Below, one piece after another: positions 24,489-51,444 of a stretch of DNA of 64,000 bases; position 1 is the stretch's first letter, and every line of letters starts with the position of its first letter. The notes beneath the pieces are model-generated. The model was not told where the DNA came from. It searched no databases and worked only from the letters and a program-made list of their open reading frames with translations. The stretch lies in the NCBI RefSeq assembly GCF_012489685.1, contig NC_080043.1, forward strand, positions 30,846,743-30,910,742, read 5' to 3'. This DNA is from Lotus japonicus. Lineage: Eukaryota; Streptophyta; Magnoliopsida; Fabales; Fabaceae. Made by a program: the position numbers and the translations under genes.

Positions 24489-24529
24489 AAAATGGAAAAA
24501 AAAACAAACTAATTAAGAAAAGGGGTGTG

Positions 24530-26861: not shown

Positions 26862-29017
26862 ATGGCCGGTGCCCAGAAGAAAAAAGGTAAAGCCACCGGA
26901 GAGAGTTCTAAGCCGAAGTCTGGCAAGGACGCTCCGAAACGGAAGAAGATCGACCGGGTAAAGGACCCCCATTTAACGGGGGACATGAAAGTGCTAGACG
27001 ATTGGTGCCGGGAGATTTTGAAGACCGAGTCCTGTTACGCAAACGAAGACAAGGGGAACTTCCGAAAAGCAGTATTATCTTTCTCAGACGCAGATCAGTC
27101 CCGATCATGACGTCTACGCCCCTGGGGCCACTAGAGGTTCCCTCAAACCCCTCCCTTCGGCATCTATATGCACATTTATACGATGAAGAAGGTGAAGGTG
27201 CGGATGCCGTTCACCGACTACAAGGTCGATGTGCTGCGTCACATGATGGTGGCTCCTTCCCAGCTTCACCCGTGCGGATAGGGTTTTGTGCGCGGCTACG
27301 AGGTCGCGTGTGCTCTCTTCGGGCGGAAGCCCTCCCTTCCTTTATTCTTTCATATTTTCGCGGTCGCCCACCCCCAAGGGCATGGGGGTTACGGAATGGT
27401 GACCTTGAGGACGACGCATCCGGTCTTCAAGGCCTTTGCGGATTCCTACAAGGATTTCAAGGACCAGTTTTTCCGGGTGGCACCGACCTCGCCCCCTCCC
27501 TTTTGGTGGTTCGAGGAAGGTCCGAGCGGCGGAATGCGACCACGTTTCCCGTTGGCTTGGAATGTTGGTCACTATAAGGAGAAAGTGCCATCGTTCAGCT
27601 TTACGGACGAGGGTGCCTTGTCGGAGGCCGATTTGGCCTTCAAACGTTTGTTGACGGGTGTCATCCGTTACGTTATGGAGGGTGAAAAGAAAGTCCTAGT
27701 TCGTCCCATACGGTGTTATAATTTGTGTTCCTTCAGCGTCCGGAGGAACGCTACGATGTTGCGTAAGTTATGATTTTATTGTTTTTTTTTTTATTATTTC
27801 GCTTGCTTACAAACTTCCTTTGTGTTCGTGCAGGAGTTATGGCAGATATCGACCAGGACTTGCTGGCAGCACTGCAGGTTGTCGACGAGGAGTCTATGGA
27901 TGAGGAGGGTGACCAGGGGAACGAGGTTCCCGGATACGAACCGCAAGTAGAGGGGCAGGAAGAGGAAGCTCAGCCGGCCCCCGACCTTGAGCATCCGGAG
28001 GGGACTGTCAAAGGAGGGCCGGAGGGAGCTATGAACGACCCGACGAAGGCCTTGACGGGAGATGTTCAAGGCGCTGGTTCCCCCCCAAAAGGTTCCGCTT
28101 CGGGGAACCGAGGTTCTGTTCCCGTTCGTAAGGAGGGCGGCTCGTCTAACGAAGGCGAGGCGGTTCCGGACCCGGCCACCAAGAGGCGCCGCGTGGAGCT
28201 CGACCGACCAATCCTTCAAGACGATGGTCAGAGCTTTAATGCTGAATGGGTGGAGCCGGTTAGCGTGGTGGCCCCTCGGAGGGTTATCTCGATGTGGGGT
28301 CCTAGGGCGGCCAATAGCGAGGAGCATCTGGAGCAGATCGGCGATCTGTTGCTTACCGAGAGCGACCAGAAGTACTTGGGTGATCAAGATCCCTACAGTT
28401 CCTGAACTATGCCCTGCGGGGTTGGCTCAAGATTGCTTTCGCCGTTCGTTACCCCCAGCTATCGGCCCTGCCCGAATTGGAAGACCTTAGAGCGAAGAAG
28501 GAGGAGGACAGCCGGTTGATAGCGGCCATGAATGGGGTGCTCCATGATCGAGGAGCTGAGCAAAGTGCTGGATATTGCGAAGGCTGAGAATAAGCAGCTG
28601 AAGACGAAGGTGCTGGCCGGGGATGCCGCTCTTAAGGACTTAGGGGATAAGCTGAAACTAGACGAAGAGGGGGCTGTGACCGGGGCCGCTCAGTTGAAGA
28701 AGGTCGAGGAAGAGTTGGTAGGGGAGAAGGCTGCCCGTTTGCTGGAGTTTGAGCAGATTGCTACCTTGAAGAAAGAGAAGGGTGAGCTTGAAGCCATGGT
28801 CTCCGCGTTGGAGGCTGACATCAAAAAGCTGGGGGTCACCATAGCGAAGATCAACAAGGCTTCTTTCAAGAATGCGGTGAGCCAGCTTTCGGTCGTCAAT
28901 CCGGGCTTGAATGTTGGACCGGTCGGGTACAGGAAGGTTGTTTCGGGTGGAAAGATTGGGACTGTTGACACCAAGGGCAACTTTACCCCGACCTATCCTC
29001 CGGAAGGAGCTCCCTGA
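26862..29017 (+). pseudogene. Gypsy-A antisense gene (Tat aORF), decayed
   Basis: Plus-strand gene opposite to gag-pol. A 5'UTR intron (26613-26853, gtaagt...gcgcag) precedes the ATG at 26862, which opens a lysine-rich N-terminus (KKKGKATGESSKPKSGKD). Frameshifts near 27050-27290 break exon 1. Its later part (27288-27762) reads RGYEVACALFGRKPSLPLFF and VAHPQGHGGYG, the conserved core of the proteins that Pfam calls putative gypsy-type transposon. Intron 27763-27833 (gtaagt...gtgcag) joins in phase 1 to exon 2 (27834 on, VMADIDQDLLAAL), which is acidic and breaks at 28405. A coiled-coil C-terminal part continues at 28532-29017. The function of this family is unknown. Confidence 0.7.
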
Positions 29018-29185
29018 GCGGAAGTTGATATCATCTTGCTGTTTTTACTTTTCTTTCTAAGTGTTTTGTTTCTTGATTGTAATAGTTTTTGGACCATTGT
29101 AATAGTTTTTCTTTTAAGTAACCATTCTTGGAATGTTATGAACTTTTCAGTTTATTCGTGTTTCGTAATCATGTAGTTCGTCTCG

Positions 29186-29519: not shown

Positions 29520-30535
29520 AGAGGCTTCTGACAGTCGGTTCAGGCTAGCTGTAGCAGCGATTGAGGTTGGTCGCGTTCCAAGTGCGCGTGATTTCCTCCC
29601 CGGAAAGCGTTTTTAGCTTGTATGCTCCTGTGCCGGTTGCTTTAGTGACTCGGTATGGACCTTCCCAGTTGGCAGCTAGCTTTCCCTTTTCGGTCGAGCG
29701 GGCTCCAATAATGGCCTTGCGAAGAACCAAGTCCCCCAGCCTGAATGCCCGGGTGACGACCTTCTTATTGTAGCGTATGGTTGCGTGCTGCTTGGCAATT
29801 AGTTCCCTGTAATTATCAATTGCTCTTCTCTCTTCGAGAAGGTCGAGGTCCTCCCCGATAAGCTGGTCGTTTACCGTTGGGTCGTAACCCAAGCTGCGAG
29901 CGCTCGGCTCTCCTATTTCCGCCGGAATGACCGCCTCAGTCCCGAACGTCAGGCGAAAAGGGCTCTCCCCAGTAGTGGAGTGTGGGGTGGTGCGGTATGC
30001 CCACAGGACGTGGTCGAGCTACTCTGCCCAGTTTCCCTTAGCGTCGTCCAGCCTCTTCCTGAAGCCCCCTAACAATGACTCGGTTTGCGGCTTCTGCTTG
30101 CCTGTTCGTCTGGGGGTGCTCAACTGAAGTGAAGCGTTGCTTGATGTGTAGCCCACTTACCAATTCCCTGAATCCTTTAGAGGTAAATTGGGTGCCATTG
30201 TCGGTAATCAGGACCCTAGGCACCCCAAATCTGCTGATAACGTTTCGGTAAAAGAAGCGTTGGATGCGGGCGGAGGTGATTGTGGCGAGGGGCTCTGCCT
30301 CAATCCACTTGGTGAAGTAGTCCACTGCGACTACTAAGTGCTTCAGTTGTCCAGGAGCGGTGTCGAAGGGTCCTAGGAGGTCCATCCCCCATTGGTGGAA
30401 AGGCCAAGGCGAGACCCGAGACGAGAGGCATTCAGGGGGGGCAGGCGGAGGTCGGCATGCCTTTGACACAGGTCACACTGCTTGACGTGCTCGGTCGCAT
30501 CCTTCTCTAGTGTGGGCCAGAAGTAGCCGGCTCAG
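29520..30535 (-). pseudogene. Gypsy-A integrase
   Basis: Minus-strand ORF 30469-30038 shows the DDE core: WGMDLLGPF (first Asp), ITDNGTQF (second Asp) and VEHPQTNRQAEAANRV (Glu). The C-terminal part follows in a different frame at 29892-29545 with LGDLVLRKA, NWEGPYRV and GAYKL, the usual end of plant gypsy integrases. The frame change near 30030 and the loss of a continuous join to the RNase H make it non-functional. Confidence 0.85.
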
Positions 30536-31230
30536 AGTACCTTCCTTGCCAGCGATCGTCCTCCAGGGTGATGTCCACACCTACCCTCATGGATCTCTAC
30601 GAGGACGTAGTCTGCTCGCTCCTTTGATAGGCATTTGAGGAGTGGGGTAGAGAACCCTCTCTTAAAGAGGTCATCGTTGATGATGGTGTACCAAGACGCG
30701 CACCTAGTTAGCTTCTTGGCCTCAGGTCTACTAGGTGGTAGCCAGCCCGTTGTGAGGTACTTGATGATAGGGGCCCTCCAGTCCTCGTCCGTGCTGATGC
30801 TCATGGTGGGGTGTTCAGTCGGACGATTGGGATCTGCGACGTAAGGTAGGGCCAACGTTCCTTGAATAACTGTCTCGTTCAGTCCGGGTTTCCCGGTGCT
30901 TGCTAGCTTGGCCAAGGTGTCAGCTCGGTCGTTCTGAGTTCTTGGGACATGGCGGAACTCCACCTTCCTAAACGTCGTAGCGAGCCACTTCAGGTGTGAG
31001 AGGTACTGCTCCAGAATGGGATCCTTGGCTTGGGCCTCGTCGTTGGCCTGGGAGACCACCAGAAGGGAATCACAGCAGACGAGTATGTCCTTCGCTCCCA
31101 GGTCCCAAGCAGTTACTAAGCCAGCTATGCAGGCCTCGTATTCGGCTTGGTTGTTGGTGGTTGGGAAATTGAACCGCAGTGACTGTTCCACTACTATCCC
31201 CGTATTGCTTTGGAGGACGATCCCAGCACC
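30532..31230 (-). pseudogene. Gypsy-A RNase H, C-terminal part, cut by Gypsy-B
   Basis: Minus-strand frame reads NRGGAGIVLQSNTG at 31230, then FPTTNNQAEYEACIAGL (Glu), VCCDSLLVV (Asp) and RTQNDRADTLAKLAS (Asp). This is the archaeal-type RNase H that Tat elements carry as a second RNase H before integrase. The domain's first catalytic Asp (IHVDDSSN) lies on the far side of Gypsy-B at about 46605-46625. A single ACCCC duplication separates the two parts. Confidence 0.85.
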
Positions 31231-31235
31231 ACCCC

Positions 31236-31520
31236 TGTTCTGGTAATGAACATTGAAGGAAGGGATAGTACCTAGAGAGTGGAAGAATGTGCTAGAGAGA
31301 GAAAGAGAATGAGAGAGAGAGTGTGCTGAATTTCATGTGCTATTTTATAAAATGAGCCAAAAGTCCCTTACAATTGGTATCTACCTCCTATTTATAGAGC
31401 TTGGGCACTACCTATTGGGCCAATTGGGCCTCTGAATTTGAGGCCCAACTTAAGGCCAGGCTCTCGCCCTTGGGCGGGCCGAACCCTGGGCGTCGCCCCT
31501 CTAGGGGCTCGCCCAGTCCA
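31236..31520 (-). repeat. Gypsy-B 3' LTR
   Basis: 285 bp; TATA-like ctataaata on the minus strand at about 31391-31399. Beyond its right border, read on minus, cttgtggactag precedes TGGACT and is the probable polypurine tract. Confidence 0.9.
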
Positions 31521-32175
31521 CTAGTCCACAAGACACCAAGCTCGAAGTATGAGAGCTAAGTGTGTCTTTTAAATGCTTTTACATGCATCTTATGGTGTGC
31601 TGGAATCTAAGCTGCCAACATGGCTTGAGGAAAAAAAGAAGAAAACTACGTCGCCAACATGGCGTAAGCGAAAGGAAACAAGCATCTTTAGTCGCCCAGT
31701 CCACTGGTCTTGGCGAGCAACCCAAACCGGCAAGTCCACAAGTCCACAAGCGGCGGGAACGATCGCTTTGTACTGACGATTAGTTGGAGTAGGCGAGCGT
31801 CTTTCGTCGGCGAGCTAGGTGACAGGTGTTAGTCATGTACTGATCATCCATGTGTTGGCTGGCGATGCCCTTTGGCCGGCGGCTAAACTTCATTGGCAAC
31901 ACCATTTGTTAGGCGATGGCATTTAGTCTTCATGGTGGCGAGGCCTTTCGCGCTTTCCCTTGTTTCAAAAACCTTTCAAATCTCTAACTGCTCCATGTGA
32001 TACGTCAGTTACGTCAGTTTCCCCCTTTCTCCACAACCGTCACCTCACTCCTCATAACTGTCCAATCATGCGCAGTAACTCCTCATCACACGCGTCCCAC
32101 TTCCCAAAAGCCATAATGACCTCCAACCTTCCACACGCGTCTGACACGCGTCACCCTTCCAACTTCCCCCCTTTG

Positions 32176-32185
32176 CCTATAAAAA
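32176..32185 (+). promoter_or_regulatory. TATA box of the Gypsy-B antisense gene
   Basis: cctataaaaa on the plus strand, about 148 bp before the 5'UTR donor ccg|gtgagt (32324) and 221 bp before the ATG at 32397. Confidence 0.6.
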
Positions 32186-32396
32186 CCCTTCTTCCCTACA
32201 ATCATCCCTTTCCGAGACCTCTCTTTACTTCTCTTATCGCTTACCAAGCTCCCTCTTCCAACTTCCGCTCTGGTGCCGTCGCCTTTCACCCCTTCCGCTA
32301 CCCACTCTTCACATCCTTACCCGGTGAGTCCTCGTTCCCTTATCTCTGCATCTTATCTCTACTCGTCTTTTCCTTTTCCTCTTTTAATTGTCAAAG

Positions 32397-35075
32397 ATGG
32401 CCTCAAACTCTAACTCCCTTAATCACACCTCTTCTTCTCCTGGGAGCGACCCTGACTCTACCGCAGCCGGCGGCCTCCGTTTAGAGGTCCCGGAGATTCC
32501 CCATTACCGATTGAGAACTTTCGAGACCCTGCCCCTTCCCGTCCAGAGAGCACCCTCCCACGAAGCTATAGACCAACCCTCCGTTTTCCAGGATAGGGAG
32601 CTTATTGTGGAACTCGTGAGTAACCTTGGCGGTTTGTCTGACGATGATGAAATAAATGACAAACTCAGGATTTGGCCCTGCAGCGCTGAGGACCGCCCCT
32701 GGCTTCATAGGATCGATGGCGACGTGAAGAGATCTCATTTTTTCTTTGCATATGAGTATATGTTTGGCGAGCTTCGAGTTAGGCTTCCCTTTTCGCCCTT
32801 CGTTCAAACCGTTCTCCGTGATATCAACGCGGCTCCTTGTCAACTCCACCCCAACGCCTGGGCCTTCATCCGGTGCTTTGAAATCTTGTGTGCCGCTGTT
32901 GGCACCGCCCCATCTCCCACCAGCTTCTTCTACCTCTACGATGTTGACTCCAAGTCCATCAAAAATAGAGGATGGATCTCTTTAAAGGCCCGAGCCGGCC
33001 GTAAGTGCTTGAACCCTCATAAGAGTAACGCAAAGTCCTCCTTTGCCCGGAGATACTTCTGCGTGGCGGTTCACCCCGTCTATCCTGAGGCCTTCACCCT
33101 TAGGGATGGGACTGCCCTTTTTCCCCTCTACTGGACGGAGAAGCCCAATGGGATTACCGATCCTTCAGAAGAATCTTTGTCTGTCAACGACAAAGCCTTT
33201 TTGAATCTCCTCGCCCCGCTTCCTATCCTTGACTGCTCAACAGTCCTTGAGGGCGCTCGCCTTTCAAGGACACCCAAATACTTAGGTCACTTATAGTTTA
33301 TTTTTATCATCGCCATTTCTCTCTCGTTTTTTCATCATCATCATTTTCTTTCTTACCCCTTATGTTGCTACTGACCTTTTTTTTCATTTATTGTTGCAGA
33401 AGATATGAACTTCACCAACGCCGAGCTCCTGAAAGCCCGCGAGAGGAAAATGACCCGTTTCTCTCCAAAGTTCAACACTGAAGGCGATGGGAAAAAACGG
33501 GGCGGTGCTGAGAACCAAACCGAGGGCGCCCAAGCCCACAAGAGGAGGAAATTAGTTAAAGTCTCCTCTGTCGCCCCGGGATCTGCAGTCGCCGGCTCCT
33601 CCAACCCCAGCGCTCAACCCACCACTGCCGCTGTGTCCAAAGGCAAGAATGTTGCCAAAGCCTCCGCCAAAGCTTCCGCCGCCACGGCCACCGAGTCTGC
33701 CACTGTCACAACTCCCAATTCCGCTACCGGTGGTACAGCCACCGTTGCCGCCGCCAAGTTCACTACTGTAGGCGCCACAACCGCAACTGCTGACCAGTCA
33801 TCAACTGCCGGCACAACCACCAACACTTCTCAACCCTCAGCTGTTGAGAAGCTTGCCGCCATCAACGCCACAACCGCTGCCGCGTCTTCCAATGCTCCCG
33901 CCGGGGAGAAAGAAAGAGAAAGAGAAAAAGAAACCCCCAAGTCTCCCCCTCGCCAAGTCGCACCTCCTAGCCCGCCTCCAACGAATGATGGGTGTTCCAT
34001 GTCTCCCCCACCTCATCAAGAAGAAAGACCCTCTCCTGATGCCGCCACTACCTTTGAAGCAGCCCGGATCGAGCAAGCTCCTGGCAACAAGGGCGGCTCT
34101 TCTAGCTACTACAATATGCTTCCCAACGCCATTGAACCTTCAGAGTTCTTACTTACCGGCCTCAACCGTGACGCCATAGAAAAAGAAGTTTTGAGCCGGG
34201 GTATTAATGAGACCAAGGAGGAGACCCTTGCTTGTCTTCTATGCGCTGGGTGCATCTTCGCCCACGCGTTTGACAATTTCAACGCCGCCGCTGCTGAAAC
34301 TGAACGGTTGAGGGCTGAGAATGCCAAGCACCAAGAGGACGCCGCCGCTTGGAAGAAGCGCTTCGATAAATTGTTGGACCAAGCGGGCAAAGAAAAAGTC
34401 CAGGCCGACAAGTTGATTGGTACGGCGGGGATTAAAATCGGCGAACTGGAGGATCATCTGAAGCTGATGAGGGAAGAAGCGGATGGCCTCGATGCAAGTC
34501 TCCAAGCTTGCAAAAAGGAAAAAGACCAAGCTGAGAAGGACTTGGCCGCCAGAGGGGAGGCGCTGGCTGCTAAGGAGTCAGAGCTCGAAGTGTTGCACGC
34601 TGAACTGGAGTCAGCGAAAAAGGCGTTGGCGGAGCAGGAGGAAAAGTCTGCTGAGTCTTTAGCTTCGGCGAAGGCGGATCTGGAGGCGGTGATGCGAGCT
34701 ACTTCTGAGGAGATCAAGAAGGCGGACGAAGCTCGTGGGGCAGCCCTCGCCGCGAAAGATGCCGAAATTACTTCCCATCTTGCGAAGATCAAAGAGCTAG
34801 AGGGCGATCTGGCGGTGGAGAGAGCCAAAGCCGTTGAGGCGAGGGAGCAAGCCGCTGACATTGCCTATGACAATCGTGAGCGTGGCTTTTACCTCGCCAA
34901 GGACCAGGCTCAACACTTGTTCCCTGACTTTGACTTTAGCGCCATGGGAATAATGAAAGAAATCACTGCTGAAGGACTGGTTGGTCCTGATGATCCTCCT
35001 TTGATTGACCAACACCTCTGGACCGCAACTGAAGAAGAAGAAGAAGAAACAGGAGAAGAAGAAAGAAATAATTAA
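32397..35075 (+). CDS. Gypsy-B antisense gene (Tat aORF), open across two coding exons
   Basis: Opposite strand to gag-pol. A 5'UTR intron (32324-32396, gtgagt...caaag) ends right at the ATG. Exon 1 is 32397-33285; intron 33286-33399 (gtcact...ttgcag) is joined in phase 1; exon 2 is 33400-35075. Together they give 2565 nt, 854 aa with no stop. Exon 1 encodes a globular domain with aromatic blocks (RLPFSPFVQTVLRDI, LHPNAWAFIRCFEILC) of the putative gypsy-type transposon family. Exon 2 starts with a basic KKRGG...HKRRK stretch, then a long Ala/Thr/Ser-rich linker, and from about residue 560 a heptad-rich coiled coil (LRAENAKHQEDAAAWKKR onward) ending in an acidic tail. A basic nuclear-localisation-like patch and coiled coil suggest a nuclear protein, an inference only. 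Molecular function unknown. Confidence 0.75.
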
Positions 35076-36103
35076 TAGTGTAATTTTAATTTTTACCTAG
35101 CCTTTACCGCCCTTTGTAATGCACTTTCCTGTTATTTTCATATATATAAGTAACCTTTTCGCCATTGCTTTCGCATCGCCTTTGTATACTTTGTAAATCT
35201 CATTGAATGATTGTTAGGTTTAGGCGATTGTTGAATCATTGCTCTCGCCGTAAATCCGCAAATCGCCGCATTCTTATTGTTAAAAAATTTAAGAATGAAT
35301 TTCATAGTTAAACGCCCCGACGCACCGGAGTAATAAAATACTCAACAGCCTGAGTGACCAAGCACTCGCCTTCCACCTTATTCATTTGCCGACCTTATAT
35401 CTTGCGCTATTTTTCACGCGTCATGTGATTGAATTACGCCTAACGATTTCGTGCATTAATTTTAACTAGGGCTTGTTGCTTGGCATTTCTCCGTCAAGAC
35501 TTTAAACATTTTCCACAAAGGGATAAATGGCCTCCATTCTTGAGGGCTTTGCCCGCTCGGGGCTTACAATGCTTAGGTCCCAATGGCCATTTGGGGGTCC
35601 CAAGACTTTTGCCTAGTTAATGGCGCTCGTCGTATTCTGGCGAGACTTACCCAGCACATCGTTTACGAGACCGGCGATCACATCAGACTTTCCGGGGGGA
35701 GATTCCCAGGCGTCAAAGGCCATTTGTGGAATCGTCGCCACCTTTAGGGTTCCAGCAAGCCCCTTTGGGGATCAAGCTTGTCCCACCTAGTGATCGCCGT
35801 AATTCTTTATATCGATCGGCAATTCCGATCGTCAGGGAATCCCTGGAATCTTTGGACATGAATTTCATGAATTCTCGTTTTATTGATGGAGCGCCTCGTT
35901 AAAAAACTCCTTCCGGAGAAAAAGAGCACGCTTTTGTTATGGCAATACATTGGAGAGTTTGGAGATATTTTTAGAAAAATTGAAGATATCTAACTTTGGC
36001 GAATTCACTTTGTTCATCAGAAGTTCTTCCTTGGAGCTCCTCGCCTTTCCAGCTTTCTCGCCCACGATCAACTGTAATAATAGCGCAGGCTCAAACCGTT
36101 GAA
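35076..36103. other. Gypsy-B non-coding DNA between antisense gene and integrase end
   Basis: No ORF. gcgatcg and tcgcc motifs recur, and a polyadenylation-prone AT-rich stretch follows the antisense stop at 35076-35160. Nothing else recognised. Confidence 0.5.
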
Positions 36104-36515
36104 TGACCTGGGTAGTCGCCTTCCATCAAGCTCTTATAAGTGATAGGCCCCTGTACCAAAAACTTTGACAATGCGGTAGGGACCTTCCCAGTTCGGAGTC
36201 AGCTTGTTTCCTGAGGTTCCTGATCGCCACTTGAGGACCAGATCGCCAACTTGCATATCCCGGGGGCGAACCCTGCTATTGTACTTGGCGGCCACGCGCT
36301 GCTTCATCGCCGTCTCTCGAATGTGCGCCTCGTCACGCGTTTAAGACAAAAGATCCAGCTCCATCGCCATATTGGCTTGATTCTCCCCTTCAAAATCCGG
36401 CTGAGTCCGCCATGTGAAATTGTCAATTTCCACTGGTAACATAGCATCTACCCCATAGGTCATTCTAAAGGGAGTTTCTCTTGTAGTAGATTCCTCAGTG
36501 TTGTTGTACGACCAG
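36104..36515 (-). pseudogene. Gypsy-B integrase C-terminal part, cut by Copia-2
   Basis: Reading minus from 36520: VLWSYNNTEESTTRETPFRM, YGVDAMLPVEI, then after an in-frame stop RVRPRDMQVGDLVLKW and NWEGPYRIVK. It continues the integrase of 45151-44816 on the other side of Copia-2 and contains at least one nonsense codon (about 36343). Confidence 0.85.
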
Positions 36516-36520
36516 AGTAC

Positions 36521-37730
36521 TGAAGGTATGAAAAACGGTAGAAAGGGGGGGTTTGAATAACGTTTTCAGAACAAAACTTCCACCTTAAAGATTTTGACAA
36601 ATCTTTCGAGAACTTAAGTGCTAAAGATAAGAGATAGAAAAGCACACAAGGATTTTATCCTGGTTCACTTGATAAATCACTCAAGCTACTCCAGTCCACC
36701 CGTTAAGGTGATTTCTTCCTTCTTAGAATGAAGGCAATCCACTAATCAGGTAAGAGTTACAACTGCACTTGAAACCTACAAGTGACTAACAATTACACTG
36801 ACTTAGCTCACACTAAGATTCACTCTCTTAGTCTTCTCTAGGATCCGATCAACCTTGATCTCCTAAAGGAACTAAACAAACTGTTTATCAAAGAATTGTT
36901 TACAAGAGATTTGCTTCTAAAAAGCTAATAGTAAACACAATGAATTTCAGATGAAAGAAAGCTTAGAATATTTTGAATATGTCTTGCGCGTATATGTGTT
37001 TTTTTCTTGCCGCTTCTTTCAATCTTCAGCCTCTATATATACTCCAAGGATTAGGGTTGAGCGTTGCATGGGAAATGCTACCGTTGGAGGGCAGTTCTGG
37101 AAAATCCAGCTTCTGCTGTGGCTGAGAACGTTAGGTAGGTCGTCAGGAAGGTACACTTGCTTTTGTACTTGGATAGCGACTTGACCTTTTAACCTAGGAG
37201 ACTTCTGATCAGGGGAATACTTCATATTGGAACTTGTGAAGCCGGTTGATCAGAGTCAGAGGGAAAGCACAGATCCTCTGACCATTGTATCTTCTGATTC
37301 TGAACTCAGAGGGAAGAACATGGCCTTCAGAGTTTCTTGCTTCTGGACTTCAGAGTTTCCACTATTCAGCTTCTGGATCTTCAGAGTCTTCTACACCATC
37401 AGAACATCTGAACCTTCAGTGTTTCTTGGTTTTCAGAACTTCTGGATCTTCAGAGCTTCTAGCGACTGAGTCCACATCAGAGTTTGTATAGCTTCAGAAC
37501 TTCTGAAGCTTTTCCACTGTTCATACTGAACATGGTGAATGCGAAAGCGTTGCTTGGGTTACCCTTTATACACAGTGCTTCTGATTTGTGTGAGATTGAG
37601 TTGAGGTCAGAGCCTGTAAATAGCACACTCAGAAAAACACGTTAGAGTACCACAACTGTTCATATCAAAAGGTTAACTTGTAATCATCAAAACATAGAGT
37701 TGTACTACTAGATCAAAACTTGATCTTACA
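36521..37730 (-). repeat. Copia-2 3' LTR
   Basis: 1210 bp; followed inward by atctcccccttttt, the minus-strand polypurine tract. A TATA-type tatatatact is at about 37034-37043. Degenerate 16-17 bp units around tctgaagatccagaag recur through the U3 part. Confidence 0.92.
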
Positions 37731-38470
37731 ATCTCCCCCTTTTTGATGATGACAAAACTAAGATTTTTGATGAACAATTCTTAAACATTAAACTGAATTC
37801 ACTCAGAGTTTAGAGATATAGAATAAGACTTATCCTGATGTGAATAGTTTATCTTGCTCATTCTGAATTCAAGTCACTGCTTGATTCTGAGCTTAGCTCC
37901 CCCTGAATCTAATACTTGATGAAAACGTTAGTAAAGTCTAGATTCTGAGCTAAAAAATATAAGAGTTCAGAGTGAAAAGCTTATGACATAGATGAAAAAC
38001 GAATAATCAGAGCGCATAAGTGATCAGAGTCATGGACAAGGTATCAGAGTCTTGGGTATCAGAGTCAACTTATAATCACTTCAGAAGAAGTGAAATGTAT
38101 TCCTTGTATTTGCCCAGTGACACATCTATGGTCATGAAGGTGGAACTCTTAAAATCTCCAAAAGAAAAATAAATCACACTAACACATCTTACACATCAAA
38201 AACTGGGTTTACTCCCCCTTTTTGTCATAAGCAAAAAGCCTGGGGTGTGAAAAACTTAGCTTGAAGTACAAGGTACTCCCCCTTAGAGAAGGTCTAAGTT
38301 GAAAGAAAACGAAAACGATGTAAGAATCAGAGTTAGGCGAAATAAATAAAAGAGTTAATGCAAGGGATGAACGTTTACCACCGGTCAAGTGAGTAAATAG
38401 AAGGGTCAGTTACCAAGAACTTAACCTCGAGAAACTGTAAGAGCATTAACTTTCAGAGAGAAAGTGAAGC

Positions 38471-38480
38471 CTATATAAAG
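38471..38480 (+). promoter_or_regulatory. TATA box of the Copia-2 antisense small ORF
   Basis: ctatataaag, 52 bp before the ATG at 38533. The same sequence precedes the matching ORF of Copia-1 on the other strand (59198-59207). Confidence 0.55.
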
Positions 38481-38532
38481 CGTTGGAGAGAAAGGTAAGC
38501 TTCACACCTCGAATAATTTTCAGTAAAAAAGA

Positions 38533-38844
38533 ATGGCATCATACAACGTAGCACTAGAAGAGCTGAGGAAGAAGGCCTTTGAAGAGGACTTGTTCCTGAA
38601 CATCAGGCATCCAGAGGGTGCAACTACCATCGCGGAGCTGACACGGACACTGCTGGAAGAGGACCTGCGTCCAGAGTTGGAGAGAGACCTGAAGGAATTT
38701 CTTGCCTTCGTGGAGGAGGTGCAAGAACTAAGCCGGCTTGAACTCAAGCTGCTGGAAGAGAAAGAGTGTTTGGAAGAGAAGCTCAAGACTTCAGAAGAGA
38801 TTCTGGAGAGGGATGAGCTAAAGATCAGGCTCAGCAACATCTAG
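38533..38844 (+). pseudogene. Antisense small coiled-coil ORF of Copia-2, ended early by a nonsense codon
   Basis: Opposite in direction to gag and the env-like ORF, between the latter and the 3' LTR. It has 103 codons, starts MASYNVALEELRKKAFEEDL and is rich in Glu, Leu, Arg and Lys in heptad-like spacing. The Copia-1 copy (59147-58755) is nearly identical but runs on for 130 residues: here the codon after LSNI is TAG where Copia-1 has CAG, and the remaining frame (RLEKDRSEQRQECRRMRRD) is still readable. I do not recognise the family. Function unknown. Confidence 0.55.
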
Positions 38845-39136
38845 CATGGACTGGATCGTCTGGAGAAGGATAGGTCAGAGCAGCGCCAGGAGTGCAGAAG
38901 AATGAGGAGAGATCCTCCATTCTAGATTATATGATGTAAAGAAATATGATGTAAACACAAAACAAGTTATGAATAAAACGAGTTTAGCAAACATATGTGA
39001 CACAAAGATATATATATATATATATATGCATATAGAATCACAAACGAACAAATTAAAATAAGTAAATAAAAAAGAAACAGAGTTTAACAAAAGGAAAACA
39101 AGGTTAACGAAAGAAGAAAAAGAAGAGATCCTAAAA

Positions 39137-41008
39137 CTAAGGTTTGTCAGTGCGTCGCAGAAGTTTCATCATCATTTGCTTCATCTCAATCAGCATGGAT
39201 TCATGAGTGTCAAGACGTTGTTCCATGATGTCGAGTCTGGATGAGCTTGTCTGAGTAGAGCTGGAAGGAACATTCTGAGCAGCTTGAGGATCTGGAATGG
39301 AAGCAGAAGCAGCAGGAGTAAACACAACTGGTGCAAGTCGCTCTGCCTCAGCCTCAGCTTCAAGACGCTCTGCCTCAAGTCTGGCTTGTTCAGCCTGAGC
39401 TGCTGCTTGACGTGCAGCTTCTTCTGCTTGTTCTTTCTTTCTCTTGGCTTCTTCAATAGCTTCAAGAAGCTTATTTCTCTGTTCTAGTTCATGAAGAGCC
39501 ACCCTTCTAGCAAACCTTTGCTTTGCAGCCTCAATGCTCTGACTGCCCTCTGCATGCAGGAGCTGCATCATAATCGGAACTTGAGCCACTAGCCAAGTGC
39601 TCAGATTGTTCCACTCATCAGCCACATTTTCAGCATTCTCACTGAGATCAGTCTGACCGTGCACATTGCGGAGCCTCAAGGAGGCTTCATGATAGAAGAT
39701 ATTGATGCACTCAGAGAGAGATGTGGGTTGAAGGTGAGTATAGGGAATGATGGAGAGGTTGGTTTCAGGAGAGGCTGGGTGATTGCTGCTATGGGCTTCA
39801 GAGGCACCTTGTGGAGAACCAATGTTAATCATGGGAGCATTGGGTTCAGAGGTTCCAAGGTGAGGGTCTGAAGTTTCAACCAGAGGGTGAGGTGATCTAA
39901 CCGAGGATTGGTTAGACACTGATTGTGCAGGTTCAGGGTCTGGTTGAATGGGCTCTTGTTGGTCAGGGACAGGGTGAGCTTGTTGAACTAAGGGGTCTGC
40001 CTCTTGGATAGGATTGGCCAAGATAGGTTCATCTGGGTCAACTAGACGTTCAGGTCTAGGGCCAGGATATCTCCTAGGGCTTGGACAGGTAAGGTAATAC
40101 TCTTCCAAGGCAGACACCTTCTCTTTTCTAACCTCCATGAATTTTCTAATTGATTCAGAGTTATTGGAGGGAGAAGAATCAACAACATTGATTGGGAAGG
40201 ATACAGGTGTAAAGGCTGTTGAAGAGTCTGTATCCGTGGTTCTGGCAGCAGGACGTGCTGATGCTCTGGGAGCAGAGTGATCAGACGTTCTGGGTTGTGG
40301 TTCTGTTTGGTTGGGCTCGGGTTGTTCATGGATGATTGGTTCAGAAGATAATGGGTCGTATGGAATGGTAAGGAGAGAGGTTGGATCTTCTGACCTAGAG
40401 GTTGGGTTCTGAAGCAAATTCCAGAGAGGTGCTTCGGTAGGAGAAGGTTGAAAGAAGGAGGATCGTGGGGAATGTGGTGGAGAGGTGGTTTGTGCGGCTG
40501 GTTGGGATTCAGGAATAGGAGTGAGGGGATTTGAGGAGTGTTGAAGCAAGGCAGAAATAGGAAGTGCATCAAATAAATTCAAATCATCATCAGAAGCAAG
40601 TGCAGGCTTACTTGAATGTGCTGATGATCGAGTCACTCTGGCAGGAGCTTCAGTCCTTCTGACCACTGCAGCAGCTGGTTCCACCCGAGTAGGCTTCACC
40701 ACGATTCTGACCTTCTTCTGCTTCTTCTTAGGAGGACCATCCTCACTATCATCACCATCATCATCATCAGGCTTTCTCTTTGTCTTCTTGACCAGAGGGA
40801 CATCAGAGTCCTCAGAAGATTCGTCCAGAACCATCTTCCTCTGAGCTTTCTTCTTGGGAGGAGAAGGAAACTCTGGAGCTGGTGGCAGTCTGCTGACGAA
40901 ATCATCAAGGTCAATTTCGAATCCTTGAGCCCTTAGATCTTCAACATAGCATCTGATGGCGTCAGGATTGTCTGCTTGAGTCCACAGAGGGTAGTCATTC
41001 AGAGGCAT
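39137..41008 (-). pseudogene. Copia-2 env-like ORF, N-terminally deleted
   Basis: 623 codons matching residues from about 325 on of the Copia-1 env-like protein (start RMPLNDYPLW). It is an acidic/basic segment (KKTKRKPDD, PPKKKQKKVRI), a Pro/Ser/Glu-rich middle and an Ala/Glu/Arg coiled coil near the C-terminus (AEEAARQAAAQAEQARLEAE). The N-terminal globular part is missing because the deletion joins reverse transcriptase directly to this segment. Confidence 0.8.
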
Positions 41009-41652
41009 TCTTCTTCCTCTGAGATATAACCATTTAGGAAGGCACTCTTTACGTCCATCTGATGTAGAACTATGTTGTGATTTACTGAGAAGGAGATCAA
41101 CAGTCTGATTGCCTCCAGTCTAGCTACCGGAGCAAATGTTTCAGTGTAGTCTATTCCTTCCTGCTGGCTGTAGCCTTGAGCAACTAGCCTTGCCTTGTTT
41201 CTGACTACATCTCCTTTCTCATTTAGCTTGTTTCTGAATACCCATTTCGTTCCAATAACATGGACATTCTCAGGCTTCTTCACTAAGCTCCAAACATCGT
41301 TCTTGGAGAATTGATTTAATTCTTCTTCCATGGCCAGAATCCAATCCTTGTCCTGAAGAGCTTCATCTATGGACTTGGGTTCAATTAAGGACACCAATCC
41401 TTTCAGACTGAGCAAGGTCTCTTCAGAGGGTCTGAAGGCAGATCTGGTTCTGACTGGTTCATCTTTGTTGCCCAGAATCAATTCCTTAGGGTGAGCTGCA
41501 GTGATTCTGCTCTTCTTCAGAGTTTGTGAGTTAGAGGGACCAGCTTCTTCCTCTGGTTCATCTTCCTCTGGCTCAACTTCCTCTGGAGCTGTGCCTTTGT
41601 CAGAAACATTAATGCTTAAATCTGCAAACCTTTTCATTTCCTCCGAAGCCAA
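40999..41652 (-). pseudogene. Copia-2 reverse transcriptase fragment (N-terminal fingers only)
   Basis: 217 codons: acidic linker ([18 protein letters not shown]), then [55 protein letters not shown] and [15 protein letters not shown], the start of copia reverse transcriptase. It stops there: the next bases belong to the env-like ORF. The catalytic YVDD and RNase H are lost. Confidence 0.9.
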
Positions 41653-41666
41653 CTTCGCCTCCAGGC

Positions 41667-43529
41667 TTAAGTTTCAGCTCTCGGAACATAAATTGGTGTT
41701 TCAGTGGAGCTATCAAGGATATCTGCAACATAGATAATCTTGTCCTTAGGTACCCACTTTCTGGGTCCTCTTTTGTTAGTTACCTCAGAGGTTCTGATCA
41801 CCTTGGGTGTCTCAACATAATATTTTAAAGGAATATTTGCATGATATTTAGTCATAGAAAAAGATCCCTTTTTAAGAGGATGTTTAGTAACTTTAGCAGG
41901 TACAGGATCAGGCAATATGGTACCAGAGGGAACAAAGCATTCATACAAGGATTTAGCTTTAGACACAGAAGGCTCATTTCTAGTTGGTTTAGAATAGCCA
42001 ATGCCATGCATTCCATTTCTGCTTACGCCATAGATCATTGAAGCCATTAAGCTTCTATCCACGCTTTTAGCTAGGAATCTTTGAAAAGACTTTTCATACT
42101 TAGATTCATTTCTACAATCAGAGGCATCACAGGCAACAATTTCTTCTAACTTAGCAATCTGGTTCTTAAGCACAGAGTTAGAATTTACCAAAGCATGATT
42201 TTCATTTTTCAAATCAGAAATAATTTTCTCATGTTCAGAAGGAGTCTTGGAGACAGCAGATAAGTTCTTTTTCAACTTTTTATGCTTAGACAATAAAGAG
42301 TTATACTTATCCATGATATCAGACAAAGCATGTTTCAGTTCAGAGGTAGAGAAAGAAGCAAATACCTCATTTTCATCGTCTGAGTTAGGATCTCCTTCTG
42401 ATTCTGAGTCAGAGTCAACAGCTTCCTTTGACTCTGCTTCCTTGTCTTTGACAATTGCCATGAGTCCTTGGACTTCACCATCAGAGTCAACATCCTCTGA
42501 CTCTGATTCATCAAATGTCACCATCAGACTCTTCTTCGTCTTGAAGTGCTTCTTTGGCTTCTTGTCTTTCTTCAACTTTGGACAATCACTTTTGTAGTGC
42601 CCAGATTCTTTGCACTCAAAACATGTGACTTCCTTGATTGAAGACTTCTTCTGGCCTGAGGACTCATACTTTCCTTTTGCCTTTCCAGAGCCTTTGAACT
42701 TGCTCTGCCTGTGCTTCCAGATGCGGTTGAGTCTCTTGGAGATCAGAGTCAGCTCATCTTCATCAGAATCTTCTGATGCTTCTTCAGATTCTTCTTCTTC
42801 AGCTTGAAGAGCCTTTGACTTCTCAACCTTAGCCTTTTCAGATTTGGATTTCAAGGCTATGGACTTTTTCCTCAGATCTTGCATCTCTGAGCGTTTCAGC
42901 TCATGGCATTTCAAAATGCTGATGAGTTCTTCTAAACTCATATTCTCAACGTCTCTCGTGAGCTCTATTGAAGTCACCAAAGGCATCCAACTTTCAGGAA
43001 GACACCTGATGACCCTTATGACATGATCTTTTGTTGTGTAGCTCTTGTTGAGAGGTCGTATGCCAGCTACAAGCAATTGAAATCTGGAGAACATTTCTTC
43101 AATGGACTCATTTGGCTCCATGATGAAGGATTCATACTTTTGGATCAAAGACAATGCCTTTGATTCTTTGACTTTCTTGTTTCCTTCATGAGACATCTTC
43201 AGAGATTCAAAAATGCCTTTAGCAAACTCACGATCTGTAATCTTCTGGTACTCCTCATAGGAAATAGCACTTAGAAGAATTGCTCTTGCTTTGTGATGTT
43301 GTGAGTACAGCTTCTTTTGATCTGCAGTCATCTCTGACCTTGGGATCTTCTTGCCATCTGCATCAACTGGACGCTCATAGCCATCCACAATAATATCCCA
43401 GAGATCTGCATCGAAACCCAGAAAGAAACTTTCCAGTCTATCTTTCCAATATTCGAACCTTTGACCATCGAACATAGGAGGCTTTGCGTTGTAACCATCT
43501 CTTTGAGTTTCACTGGTGGTGGCAGCCAT
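41667..43529 (-). CDS. Copia-2 gag polyprotein
   Basis: Open for 620 codons. N-terminal gag domain (NAKPPMFDGQRFEYWKDRLE near residue 14; YEEYQKITDREFAKGIFESL near 103), a CCHC zinc knuckle CFECKESGHYKSDC around residue 304, then a long acidic, Ser-rich C-terminal region with coiled coil (LNKLSKHKKLKKNL-like), typical of the large Gag of Sireviruses. The segment with the protease active site present in Copia-1 is deleted just before the end (TPIYVPRAET). This is the only sense ORF in Copia-2 that looks intact. Confidence 0.85.
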   Translation of the reverse strand: MAATTSETQRDGYNAKPPMFDGQRFEYWKDRLESFFLGFDADLWDIIVDGYERPVDADGKKIPRSEMTADQKKLYSQHHKARAILLSAISYEEYQKITDREFAKGIFESLKMSHEGNKKVKESKALSLIQKYESFIMEPNESIEEMFSRFQLLVAGIRPLNKSYTTKDHVIRVIRCLPESWMPLVTSIELTRDVENMSLEELISILKCHELKRSEMQDLRKKSIALKSKSEKAKVEKSKALQAEEEESEEASEDSDEDELTLISKRLNRIWKHRQSKFKGSGKAKGKYESSGQKKSSIKEVTCFECKESGHYKSDCPKLKKDKKPKKHFKTKKSLMVTFDESESEDVDSDGEVQGLMAIVKDKEAESKEAVDSDSESEGDPNSDDENEVFASFSTSELKHALSDIMDKYNSLLSKHKKLKKNLSAVSKTPSEHEKIISDLKNENHALVNSNSVLKNQIAKLEEIVACDASDCRNESKYEKSFQRFLAKSVDRSLMASMIYGVSRNGMHGIGYSKPTRNEPSVSKAKSLYECFVPSGTILPDPVPAKVTKHPLKKGSFSMTKYHANIPLKYYVETPKVIRTSEVTNKRGPRKWVPKDKIIYVADILDSSTETPIYVPRAET

Positions 43530-43587
43530 TGTTTTTCACACCGGCCCGGATCACTGAACACTGTTAGGTGTGGTAATCAGAACTTGC

Positions 43588-43599
43588 GCTCTGATACCA
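43588..43599 (-). promoter_or_regulatory. Copia-2 primer-binding site (initiator tRNA-Met)
   Basis: Read on minus TGGTATCAGAGC, two bases from the 5' LTR end; complementary to the 3' end of initiator tRNA-Met. Confidence 0.9.
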
Positions 43600-43601
43600 A
43601 T

Positions 43602-44810
43602 TGAAGGTATGAAAAACGGTAGAAAGGGGGGGTTTGAATAACGTTTTCAGAACAAAACTTCCACCTTAAAGATTTTGACAAATCTTTCGAGAACTTAAGT
43701 GCTAAAGATAAGAGATAGAAAAGCACACAGGATTTTATCCTGGTTCACTTGATAAATCACTCAAGCTACTCCAGTCCACCCGTTAAGGTGATTTCTTCCT
43801 TCTTAGAATGAAGGCAATCCACTAATCAGGTAAGAGTTACAACTGCACTTGAAACCTACAAGTGACTAACAATTACACTGACTTAGCTCACACTAAGATT
43901 CACTCTCTTAGTCTTCTCTAGGATCCGATCAACCTTGATCTCCTAAAGGAACTAAACAAACTGTTTATCAAAGAATTGTTTACAAGAGATTTGCTTCTAA
44001 AAAGCTAATAGTAAACACAATGAATTTCAGATGAAAGAAAGCTTAGAATATTTTGAATATGTCTTGCGCGTATATGTGTTTTTTTCTTGCCGCTTCTTTC
44101 AATCTTCAGCCTCTATATATACTCCAAGGATTAGGGTTGAGCGTTGCATGGGAAATGCTACCGTTGGAGGGCAGTTCTGGAAAATCCAGCTTCTGCTGTG
44201 GCTGAGAACGTTAGGTAGGTCGTCAGGAAGGTACACTTGCTTTTGTACTTGGATAGCGACTTGACCTTTTAACCTAGGAGACTTCTGATCAGGGGAATAC
44301 TTCATATTGGAACTTGTGAAGCCGGTTGATCAGAGTCAGAGGGAAAGCACAGATCCTCTGACCATTGTATCTTCTGATTCTGAACTCAGAGGGAAGAACA
44401 TGGCCTTCAGAGTTTCTTGCTTCTGGACTTCAGAGTTTCCACTATTCAGCTTCTGGATCTTCAGAGTCTTCTACACCATCAGAACATCTGAACCTTCAGT
44501 GTTTCTTGGTTATCAGAACTTCTGGATCTTCAGAGCTTCTAGCGACTGAGTCCACATCAGAGTTTGTATAGCTTCAGAACTTCTGAAGCTTTTCCACTGT
44601 TCATACTGAACATGGTGAATGCGAAAGCGTTGCTTGGGTTACCCTTTATACACAGTGCTTCTGATTTGTGTGAGATTGAGTTGAGGTCAGAGCCTGTAAA
44701 TAGCACACTCAGAAAAACACGTTAGAGTACCACAACTGTTCATATCAAAAGGTTAACTTGTAATCATCAAAACATAGAGTTGTACTACTAGATCAAAACT
44801 TGATCTTACA
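43602..44810 (-). repeat. Copia-2 5' LTR
   Basis: 1209 bp. Differs from 36521-37730 by ttggttatcag against ttggttttcag and by one A in a short run (cacacagg against cacacaagg). Starts TGTAAGATCAAG and ends CATACCTTCA on the minus strand. Confidence 0.92.
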
Positions 44811-44815
44811 AGTAC

Positions 44816-45222
44816 CACAGGGAGTTCATCCAGCCAGGCTCCCTTAGCTTCCTCAAGCCGTCGCCTTAATCCGCGCAGAATCACCCTGTTTGCAGATTCC
44901 ACTTGACCGTTCGTTTGCGGATGCTCCACAGAGGCGAACCTCATCTGTATGCCCATTTCCTTGCAAAATTCCCTTATTTGGTTGCTTGAAAACTGGGTCC
45001 CGTTGTCGGATACGATCGCCCTTGGGATCCCGAACCTGCAAACAATACGCTTCCAGTAAAAGTTGACTATTTTTGCAGAGGTTATTTTAGCCAGGGGCTC
45101 AGCTTCAATCCATTTAGTAAAGTAGTCCACCGCTACTAATATAAACTTCATCTGCGACCTGGCGGTCGGAAATGGTCATACCAAATCCACACCCCACATG
45201 GCGAAAGGCCATGGGGCGCTCA
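44816..45222 (-). pseudogene. Gypsy-B integrase catalytic part, fused after gag by deletion
   Basis: Minus-strand frame: WPFAMWGVDLV then TGA where a Gly codon is expected, LVAVDYFTKWIEAEPLAKI, IVSDNGTQFSSNQIREF and VEHPQTNGQVESANRVILRG, giving all three catalytic acidic residues. It starts within about 20 bases of the gag stop, so everything from the zinc-knuckle end of gag through RNase H is deleted. It is interrupted at VVL by Copia-2 and resumes at 36515. Confidence 0.85.
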
Positions 45223-45223
45223 T

Positions 45224-46135
45224 TCAGCTACCGGTGGCTTGTTTCGCGCGCTTTCTTTTGAAAGCATCGTCCTCCTCGTCAAGAATATAAGTGCTAGCGC
45301 GAGCACGCATCTCTTCCATCGAACGTGCAGGCTTGCGTGTCAACTTGCTGTTCAACCTTCCCAGTAACAAACCATTCTTAAATGCTAGAGCACAGGCTCG
45401 AGGCTCCTCATCCTCTACCTTGACCGATGCAGCGCTGTACCTTGCCATGTACTGCTTCAGTGACTCTCCTTCTTGTTGGCGAATGTTGTATAGATCATTG
45501 ATCGTCACCTGCTGATTGTTATTCGCCGAGAATTGCACTAGAAACTTGGATGAGAAGTCTCTGAAATTCGAAATCGATCCGCGCGGCAAAGTTGTGAACC
45601 ATGCCATCGCCGTCGATTTTAAAGTCGATGAAAACATCCTGCATTTCACCGCATCTGATGCCGCGATTATCACCATCTTCGTGTTGAAATACAGAAGATG
45701 ATCCTTCGGATCAGAATCCCCGCTGTAAGAATCCAGAACCAACGTTTTCATATTATCTGGAATCACCACATTCTCAACGTCCTCCGAGAACGGACGGAAC
45801 TCAGCTACGGAATCCGCTTCTCTGCCTCCATCATCTTGTTGCTCGCGACGGTAGAAATCCAACTGAGCTTGTAAATGCTCATTCCGCTGCTGGATGTCGC
45901 CAATGCTGCGCATCATATGGCGCCATTCCTCCTGCGTCACTGCCGGTTGTCGCTCCGGAGTAGGTGAATTCTCCGGTGGTGGTGATGGAGGAGGAGAAGG
46001 CGGCAAAGAAGTGTGTGTAGCCTGTACTCCCGCTGTTCGCATCGGAGAATCCAAGACAACTCGCTGAGGCCGCCGAGGCGGCGAGGTTCGCCGTCGCACC
46101 GGCGAATGATGCTGCTTCTTGCGTCGAGTCTCCAT
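45224..46135 (-). CDS. Gypsy-B gag
   Basis: 303 codons, open. Basic, Pro/Ser/Arg-rich N-terminus (HSPVRRRTSPPRRPQRVV), then the retrotransposon gag domain: SGDSDPKDHLLYFNTKM near residue 135, TAMAWFTTLPRGSISNF near 171 and QQEGESLKQYMARY near 217. It ends at KRAKQATGS where a zinc-knuckle region would normally follow, so the C-terminus is cut by the internal deletion. Start chosen at the first ATG downstream of the primer-binding site. Confidence 0.85.
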   Translation of the reverse strand: METRRKKQHHSPVRRRTSPPRRPQRVVLDSPMRTAGVQATHTSLPPSPPPSPPPENSPTPERQPAVTQEEWRHMMRSIGDIQQRNEHLQAQLDFYRREQQDDGGREADSVAEFRPFSEDVENVVIPDNMKTLVLDSYSGDSDPKDHLLYFNTKMVIIAASDAVKCRMFSSTLKSTAMAWFTTLPRGSISNFRDFSSKFLVQFSANNNQQVTINDLYNIRQQEGESLKQYMARYSAASVKVEDEEPRACALAFKNGLLLGRLNSKLTRKPARSMEEMRARASTYILDEEDDAFKRKRAKQATGS

Positions 46136-46300: not shown

Positions 46301-46583
46301 TGTTCTGGGAATGAACATTGAAGGAAGGGATAGTACCTAGAGAGTGGAAGAATGTGCTAGAGAGAGAAAGAGAATGAGAGAGAGAGTGCTGAATTTCATG
46401 TGCTATTTTATAAAATGAGCCAAAAGTCCCTTACAATTGGTATCTACCTCCTATTTATAGAGCTTGGGCACTACCTATTGGGCCAATTGGGCCTCTGAAG
46501 TTGAGGCCCAACTTAAGGCCAGGCTCTCGCCCTTGGGCGGGCCGAACCCTGGGCGTCGCCCCTCTAGGGGCTCGCCCAGTCCA
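46301..46583 (-). repeat. Gypsy-B 5' LTR
   Basis: 283 bp with a TATA-like ctataaatag on minus (46451-46460). Very short LTRs are unusual for Tat elements, but the same ends are seen in the old copy at 1675. Confidence 0.9.
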
Positions 46584-51442: not shown

Positions 51443-51444
51443 AT

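What the first reader, a model, noticed from the sequence alone, without database searches (positions are those of the whole stretch)
32176..35075. Antisense spliced gene stays open (854 codons) in a Tat element whose sense pol is destroyed
On the strand opposite to gag-pol Gypsy-B has a TATA box (32176), a 5'UTR intron ending at the ATG, a phase-1 coding intron (33286-33399) and two exons that together read 854 codons without a stop. The sense side has lost protease, RT and RNase H and has nonsense codons in integrase. Either the gene is useful to the element or host, or the element was copied recently from a family in which only gag and this gene matter. Antisense ORFs are known in Tat lineages; an own promoter and intron with preserved frame is worth a test.
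Basis: partly seen in the sequence, partly recalled or inferred. Interest (0 to 1): 0.85.

Follow-up and report, generated by a model that had tools for sequence, protein, structure and literature searches.

The report
Spliced antisense gene in plant retrotransposon
A jumping element in a legume genome carries, on the strand opposite to its own genes, a two-exon gene of a known but unexplained family that selection has kept working; an intron at or near the same place in relatives suggests that pieces listed so far as separate open frames are one spliced gene.

Summary
Observation confirmed. 32397-33285 + 33400-35075 (+) reads 854 codons across a 114-bp intron, antisense to a Ty3/gypsy copy (LTRs 281/285 identical, TSD ACCCC) that lost protease, RT and RNase H. 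Exon 1 carries PF04195 (Transposase_28, TRP28), the known hallmark of antisense ORFs of Retand/Tat elements, so the kind is known. Genome: Lotus japonicus by inference. At least 132 exon-1 places were scored. In a sample picked by noncoding DNA, shared exon-1 variants are depleted in amino-acid changes (0.35 of neutral), private ones hardly (0.75): selection in the spreading lineage, decay afterwards. An open frame in a copy this young is unremarkable; nothing points to host use. The pol deletion was found in no other scored copy; four other short copies, with three other junctions, also kept the gene region, damaged in two. New here: a phase-1 intron at or near the same place in two other antisense TRP28 families (Gypsy-A in this window; L100) and, by protein pattern only, in distant homologues. 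I read the TRP28 ORF and the coiled-coil ("SMC-like") ORF reported separately as two exons of one spliced gene. No RNA evidence was available. Function unknown; most likely a nuclear accessory protein.

The parts
32178..32185 (+). TATAAAAA, candidate promoter box of the antisense gene
   Evidence: (28 of 30 copies); not shown to be the start: the P0001 model starts upstream
32324..32396 (+). putative 5'UTR intron ending at the ATG; uncertain
   Evidence: donor 30/30, acceptor 29/30 in close copies, AG absent in L073
32397..33285 (+). exon 1 of the antisense gene (296 codons + 1 nt)
32778..32945 (+). TRP28 (Transposase_28, PF04195) match, residues 128-183
   Evidence: E 3.2e-7; AlphaFold2 model of exon 1 pLDDT 82, pTM 0.81
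33286..33399 (+). phase-1 coding intron, GT..AG, 114 nt
   Evidence: phase-1 introns at or near the same place in Gypsy-A (27763-27833) and L100
33400..35075 (+). exon 2: Ala/Ser/Thr-rich linker, coiled-coil segment, acidic end, stop
33492..33551 (+). NLS-like basic stretch (by eye, not predicted by a program)
34284..34856 (+). SMC-like coiled-coil segment
   Evidence: TIGR02168 E 9.4e-5, far below its cut-off
31236..31520 (-). 3' LTR of Gypsy-B; TSD ACCCC at 31231-31235
   Evidence: LTRs 281/285
46301..46583 (-). 5' LTR of Gypsy-B; TSD ACCCC at 46584-46588
45224..46135 (-). gag ORF, truncated at the deletion
   Evidence: Retrotrans_gag E 3e-12
45224..45241 (-). gag|integrase deletion junction with about 17 nt of filler
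44812..45223 (-). integrase core remnant
   Evidence: rve E 7.9e-15 for the ORF 44756-45175
36067..36520 (-). integrase C-terminal remnant with two nonsense codons (end approximate)
36521..44810 (-). Copia element inserted in Gypsy-B (LTRs 99.8% identical, TSD AGTAC)
27763..27833 (+). intron of Gypsy-A's own antisense TRP28-like gene (GTAAGT..GTGCAG, phase 1)
   Evidence: homology of the exon before it to the TRP28 profile:

Best explanation
It is the antisense accessory gene (TRP28 aORF) of a Retand/Tat-type Ty3/gypsy family of Lotus japonicus, in a young copy that lost most of pol by an internal deletion. The gene is a two-exon spliced gene: exon 1 carries the TRP28 domain, exon 2 an Ala/Ser/Thr-rich linker with a basic stretch, a coiled coil and an acidic end (shown as sequence; splicing inferred from comparison). 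It is made from an antisense transcript of the integrated DNA, and its intron survives retrotransposition because the genomic RNA is the other strand (inferred). Selection keeps the protein in the spreading lineage (shown for exon 1; supported for exon 2) and single copies decay after insertion (shown). Most likely the protein works in the nucleus in trans for the family, by binding element DNA or chromatin to support transcription or the pre-integration stage (inferred, about 0.4 for this mode of action).
For: Domain. Family and copies. Selection. Intron: family; two other families; distant homologues, protein pattern only. Structure of the copy and deletions. Antisense TRP28 ORFs known in Retand elements, Grande protein nuclear and from its own promoter: PMC11963269 (parts 1-3 of 5), PMC7264820 (parts 1-2 of 3).
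Against: No RNA or protein evidence here. The donor in this family (GTCACT/GTCATT) is poor beyond GT. L005 lost the 5'UTR acceptor, and L073 lacks it. Distant-homologue evidence is from predicted proteins of mostly unnamed contigs, not from their DNA; some may end at contig ends. In Gypsy-A the intron lies roughly, not residue-exactly, at the same place. Element M1 (L097+L073) has LTRs 285/287 identical although its gene is truncated, so a copy need not carry a full one; the gene is also damaged in the short copies E3 and E4. The lineage was not tested by an RT tree, and LTRs (283-285 bp) are just under the published Retand range (315-1,194 bp).
Confidence: 0.85

Rival explanations
1. The antisense transcript matters as RNA (double strands and siRNA against the element), not as a protein.
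For: Proposed in print as a possible parallel role (PMC7264820).
Against: Amino-acid changes are depleted among shared variants; TRP28 residues are conserved among proteins with 21-35% identity to the window; exon frame and intron phase are kept in two other families.
Confidence: 0.08
2. Domestication: this copy's gene is kept open by the host.
For: The frame is open while sense pol is broken; window-private exon-1 variants are 2 N and 3 S.
Against: LTRs differ by 2 substitutions and a 2-base gap in 285 columns, so few changes are expected; with the observed stop rate, about 9 neutral changes leave a frame open in about 0.69 of cases, indels ignored (the figure 9 is my estimate). 100 of 132 scored places have no stop in exon 1 (hand count, a set biased to close relatives).
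Confidence: 0.03
3. Gypsy-B is a member of a propagating gag + TRP28 non-autonomous subfamily.
For: E1-E4 and the window lack PR-RT-RNase H but keep the 5' part of gag and the gene region; E2 and E3 share one junction and filler at two sites.
Against: The window junction is in none of the 39 other places scored; E1, E4 and the window have different junctions or fillers, so these look like separate deletions; in E3 and E4 exon 2 is rearranged or interrupted.
Confidence: 0.1
4. The 'intron' is chance: two neighbouring ORFs in different frames.
For: Donor is weak beyond GT; relatives L071 and L100 read through it in frame.
Against: GT/AG in 30 of 30 and 36 of 40 copies; canonical GTAAGT..CAG with the same phase and next residues x-x-M in two other families; length varies from 71 to 118 nt without keeping multiples of three.
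Confidence: 0.04

Closest known systems
TRP28 antisense ORF of Retand elements (Vicient 2025, PMC11963269; parts 1-3 of 5 read)
   Same: PF04195 domain, antisense, between pol and 3' LTR; one Lotus japonicus cluster is in its table (LTR 378 bp); SMC, Mis12 and other hits on antisense ORFs.
   Different: There ORFs were called with ORF Finder and the word intron does not occur in the main text; here the TRP28 exon and the coiled-coil exon are read as one spliced gene. LTRs here are 283-285 bp.
Antisense ORF2 of common bean Ty3-gypsy families such as pvRetro13 (Gao 2014, PMC4093653; section 7 read, rest by passages)
   Same: Antisense, pol-3'LTR, SMC-like in some; 226 tblastn hits reported in L. 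japonicus; pvRetro137 and pvRetro143 encode no RT but keep ORF2.
   Different: Gene predictors were used there, but neither intron nor exon occurs in the text. Homology of ORF2 to this gene was not tested here.
Grande gene23 of maize (as described in PMC7264820; original paper not seen)
   Same: Antisense accessory gene with own promoter; nuclear protein.
   Different: Sequence relation to TRP28 not tested here; splicing unknown to me.
HBZ of HTLV-1 (named in PMC11963269; spliced form recalled, no call)
   Same: Antisense accessory gene of an LTR retroelement; nuclear; spliced (recalled).
   Different: No homology claimed; works-like comparison only.

Membership tests
TRP28 (PF04195) antisense aORF | PF04195 above the curated cut-off | tested here: met
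   30.9 bits against 26.2
TRP28 (PF04195) antisense aORF | antisense to gag-pol, between pol and 3' LTR | tested here: met
   gag and integrase on -, gene on +, 3' LTR at 31236-31520
Retand lineage | RT phylogeny | not tested
   the window copy has no RT; no tree was built for the full-size relative
Retand lineage | pol-3'LTR region of 2,933-6,566 bp | tested here: met
   about 4,547 bp from the integrase end (~36067) to the LTR (31520),
Retand lineage | LTR 315-1,194 bp in published clusters | tested here: not met
   285 and 283 bp; slightly shorter; this range is descriptive, not a formal criterion, so I say Retand/Tat-type
Retand lineage | 5-bp target site duplication (usual for plant LTR elements) | tested here: met
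   ACCCC
Autonomous LTR retrotransposon | complete gag-pol | tested here: not met
Spliced gene | cDNA across the junction | not testable with these tools
   no RNA data held

The most novel reading that the evidence does not exclude
Across flowering plants the antisense TRP28 ORF and the antisense coiled-coil ORF of Retand/Tat elements are the two exons of one ancestral, spliced accessory gene with a phase-1 intron at a fixed place, coding for a nuclear protein whose N-terminal domain has no recognisable solved relative. The intron can only persist because it lies on the strand opposite to the replicating RNA.
Probability: 0.6. Interest if true: 0.62.

Novelty: new variant of a known kind. Interest (0 to 1): 0.48.

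Why it matters
The function of antisense genes in plant retrotransposons is an open question. If TRP28 and the coiled-coil ORF are one spliced gene, ORF-based catalogues cut it in two and would test the wrong protein, and spliced junction reads give a simple strand-specific readout of its expression. A gene region kept in several pol deletions also gives a way to ask whether the protein acts in trans.

Tried and rejected
Intron-less copies: a search for the exact exon-exon junction (up to 2 mismatches) gave 5 hits, control 0, but none of the five loci aligns to the gene; an unrelated repeat. So there is no sign of a retro-processed spliced copy among junctions within 2 mismatches.

A 'tiny TRP28-only subfamily': L097+L073 (M1) is a 3.0-kb element with LTRs 285/287 identical, but the two other members of the same open-frame class that I fetched (L098, L099) have no such truncation; so it looks like a single deletion, not a subfamily.

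The first alignment of 30 copies mixed orientations; one search replaces it. The intactness count (9 of 30) treats the cut ends of loci as deletions when the intron length differs, and aligns the repetitive linker poorly, so it is a lower bound. The singleton count was inflated by one misaligned copy, L082 (58 N, 14 S, 2 stops); I use. Dropped: 14 of 40 copies, namely 13 with an exon-1 length out of register and L082. The exon-end patterns were too narrow; one search replaces them. (a Pfam scan of Gypsy-A pieces) failed on a wrong frame and was not repeated; answer the question.

Full report
What is there. The antisense gene reads 32397-33285 + 33400-35075 on the + strand, 854 codons and a stop, with a 114-nt GT..AG intron in phase 1. 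TATAAAAA lies at 32178. Exon 1 matches PF04195 (Transposase_28, TRP28) at E 3.2e-7; exon 2 has no Pfam match at E 0.01 but an SMC-like coiled-coil match, E 9.4e-5 and far below that model's cut-off. Exon 2 also has a basic, NLS-like stretch (read by eye) and an acidic end.

The element. Gypsy-B runs from 46583 to 31236 on the - strand, with LTRs of 283 and 285 bp, 281/285 identical, flanked by ACCCC. From 5' to 3': truncated gag (45224-46135, Retrotrans_gag), about 17 nt of filler, integrase core, a Copia insertion (36521-44810, LTRs 99.8%), the integrase end with two nonsense codons, the antisense gene, and the 3' LTR. It sits inside a larger element, Gypsy-A (LTRs 25122-25782 and 61436-62099, 95%), between its RT (46953-47849) and its RNase H (30532-31235; the rest of that ORF lies in the Gypsy-B LTR); I assign the RNase H and integrase at 29545-31332 to Gypsy-A.

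The genome. The best protein relatives are RefSeq entries of Lotus japonicus, 84% for P0001, on contigs of nearly the same lengths as ours; I infer that species. Some of these entries carry 'isoform X1' names; I did not see the transcript evidence behind them.

Copies. A protein search with exon 1 scored 132 places out of 3900 first-look candidates; by my hand count 100 of the 132 have no stop in exon 1 (picked by similarity, so biased). The best thirty (window included) give splice sites GT 30/30 and AG 30/30 for the coding intron, TATAAAAA 28/30, 5'UTR donor 30/30 and acceptor 29/30; at least 9 of 30 have neither stop nor frameshift up to 34784 (a lower bound: cut ends of loci were counted as deletions). 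For a sample not chosen by protein I took the 40 places (39 besides the window) best matching the noncoding stretch 32050-32396: donor GT 36/40, acceptor AG 36/40, ATG 39/40, exon 1 free of stops and in length register 18/40. Invariance of four bases in close copies is weak evidence by itself; the comparison between families below carries more weight.

Selection. Exon-1 dN/dS (ratio of means) in that sample: 0.54 for 83 pairs with dS under 0.05, 0.34 for 97 pairs at 0.05-0.1, 0.26 for 320 pairs at 0.1-0.2, 0.48 for 280 pairs at 0.2 or more, 0.42 for all 780; I think the frameshifted copies inflate the last class. With 14 of 40 copies dropped, singleton variants are N 109, S 62, stop 9 (N/S 1.76; neutral expectation with the same base changes 2.35; p 0.08); shared variants are N 40, S 60, stop 1 (0.67 against 1.88; p 2.7e-7); the two classes differ, p 2.3e-4. 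The neutral model ignores CpG context, and sites are not independent of the tree. Exon-2 C-terminal part: pN/pS 0.44 over 5 close sequences and 0.27 over 8 including diverged ones (6 cells with stops left out); gag 5' part 0.70 over 6. This is the usual picture of a gene needed by spreading copies and released in dead ones. The window copy has 2 N and 3 S private exon-1 changes, too few to say anything about the host.

Pol deletions. Against the full-size copy L065, the window lacks 1507-5084, E1 1600-6102, E2 and E3 1595-6079, E4 1534-6055 (L065 coordinates). E2 and E3 share the same filler at two sites; target duplications are exact for E1, E2, E4 and the window and have one mismatch for E3. 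A search with the E2 junction finds it whole at E2 (100%) and E3 (98%), and E1 covers the query at 89%; the other places scored cover one side only (40 places scored). The fillers of E1, E2/E3, E4 and the window differ, so I count four deletions, or three if E1 is an altered form of E2/E3. The window junction was not found elsewhere: the match ends at query position 1060 of 1489 in 38 of 39 other copies and at 1063 in one; all 39 others start at position 17 or 18. The gene is open in the pieces seen of E1 and E2 (I take the two stops in the L006 match to lie in a read-through of the intron, as one search finds none in the spliced frame), but exon 2 of E3 is rearranged near its start and E4 has a 1.4-kb insertion in exon 2.

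Pairing the 40 LTR hits by hand gives 13 elements including the window; all 13 keep the gene's upstream region, 12 of 13 have the exon-2 end in the list (E6 to position 850 of 876; E4 is the one missing), and 8 of 13 have the integrase fragment in the list (E1-E4 lost it; E12 is unresolved, as these lists are capped). That fits a need for the gene, but also deletion hot spots. Against a need in cis: M1, 3.0 kb, LTRs 285/287, carries a truncated gene and no gag or pol.

The intron between families. In this family the exon junction reads PKYL|EDM. Gypsy-A in the same window has an antisense ORF pair at 27135-27762, interrupted by a TAG at 27279, that matches the TRP28 profile (hhalign probability 98.2 and 96.8), although the longer piece has no Pfam match at E 0.01. 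It ends in a 71-nt GTAAGT..GTGCAG intron, also phase 1, reading ATML|RVM; by that alignment the exon end lies 33 residues after the last aligned residue, against 21 in Gypsy-B, so the place is similar, not residue-exact. In a third family (L100, relative P0006, 37% to the window) a 75-nt GTAAGT..ATGCAG intron, phase 1, reads QFF|TTM; counted by eye from the shared LxxLP, its exon end is at the same residue as in Gypsy-B. Families L071-L073 (DNA about 80-84%) keep GT and AG while intron length changes.

Distant homologues. Two protein searches list 121 homologues (15; one found, 120 listed). By my pattern, 53 of 121 reach the site; there the residues are mostly Y/H-I/L/F-G, 137 residues after P-x-Q-L in 30 of 53, and in 51 of 53 the ORF ends within 70 residues. 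22 lack the first motif; 46 show no site, of which 33 are too short and 13 are not. A few of the 53 are evidently chance matches of the pattern, and some ORFs may end at contig ends. Hydrophobic residues rise only modestly after the site (0.43 to 0.56, n 34). The two that go on are P0012, which reads through a hydrophobic stretch into DADMTSNKERRQKL, and P0110, an annotated Trifolium protein reading DYM|SSMSTFLAQQ; P0112, P0105 and P0039 look alike but were not caught by the pattern. These are predicted proteins; I did not see their DNA.

How it probably works. An intron on the genomic strand would tend to be lost at retrotransposition, one on the antisense strand is not (established logic). 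So the gene can stay spliced while the element replicates. The domain order suggests a nuclear protein that oligomerises by its coiled coil; Grande's protein is nuclear and its gene is transcribed from its own promoter, and TRP28 was predicted to bind DNA (PMC7264820, PMC11963269). I put about 0.4 on binding element DNA or chromatin to favour transcription or the pre-integration stage, 0.2 on nuclear import or export of element particles or RNA, 0.2 on countering silencing, the rest open. The TRP28 model is confident but has no match.

What is known. [quoted passage not shown] Antisense ORF2 is reported in 15 bean families, with hits in L. japonicus, and two of them encode no RT (PMC4093653, section 7 read, passages elsewhere). 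TRP28 is found in 23% of Retand elements in a reference survey (PMC6317226, passages). Of PMC11728184 (other aORFs in sunflower) I saw the abstract and passages, without the words antisense or intron. In ten paper searches (open-licence PMC only, listings seen) I found no report of an intron within the antisense gene; the original Grande paper did not appear in them and I did not look for the original Grande or Retand papers by id, so it may be in print. Hence: new variant of a known kind.

Noticed in passing
window 26832-29057 (+): Gypsy-A, the outer element, has its own antisense TRP28-like gene with a canonical 71-nt phase-1 intron (27763-27833) and one nonsense codon (27279).
   Followed up: yes
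L097 + L073 (G000 C3, about 13711561-13714586): A 3.0-kb element with LTRs 285/287 identical that keeps exon 1, intron and the start of exon 2 of the antisense gene; gag and pol are gone.
   Followed up: partly
L071, L100: In these copies the intron is open in frame, so unspliced RNA would also give a long protein; in Gypsy-B unspliced RNA would give about 299 residues with TRP28 only.
   Followed up: partly
window 36521-44810 and 50233-61151: Two related Copia elements in opposite orientation, each with a long extra ORF downstream of pol on the sense strand (660 and 1002 residues, stop to stop), perhaps env-like.
   Followed up: no
L066-L070: An unrelated repeat shares 19 of 21 bases with the spliced exon junction at five places.
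   Followed up: partly
window 23674-24489: Two direct copies of about 410 bp, 93% identical, start to start 407 bp.
   Followed up: no
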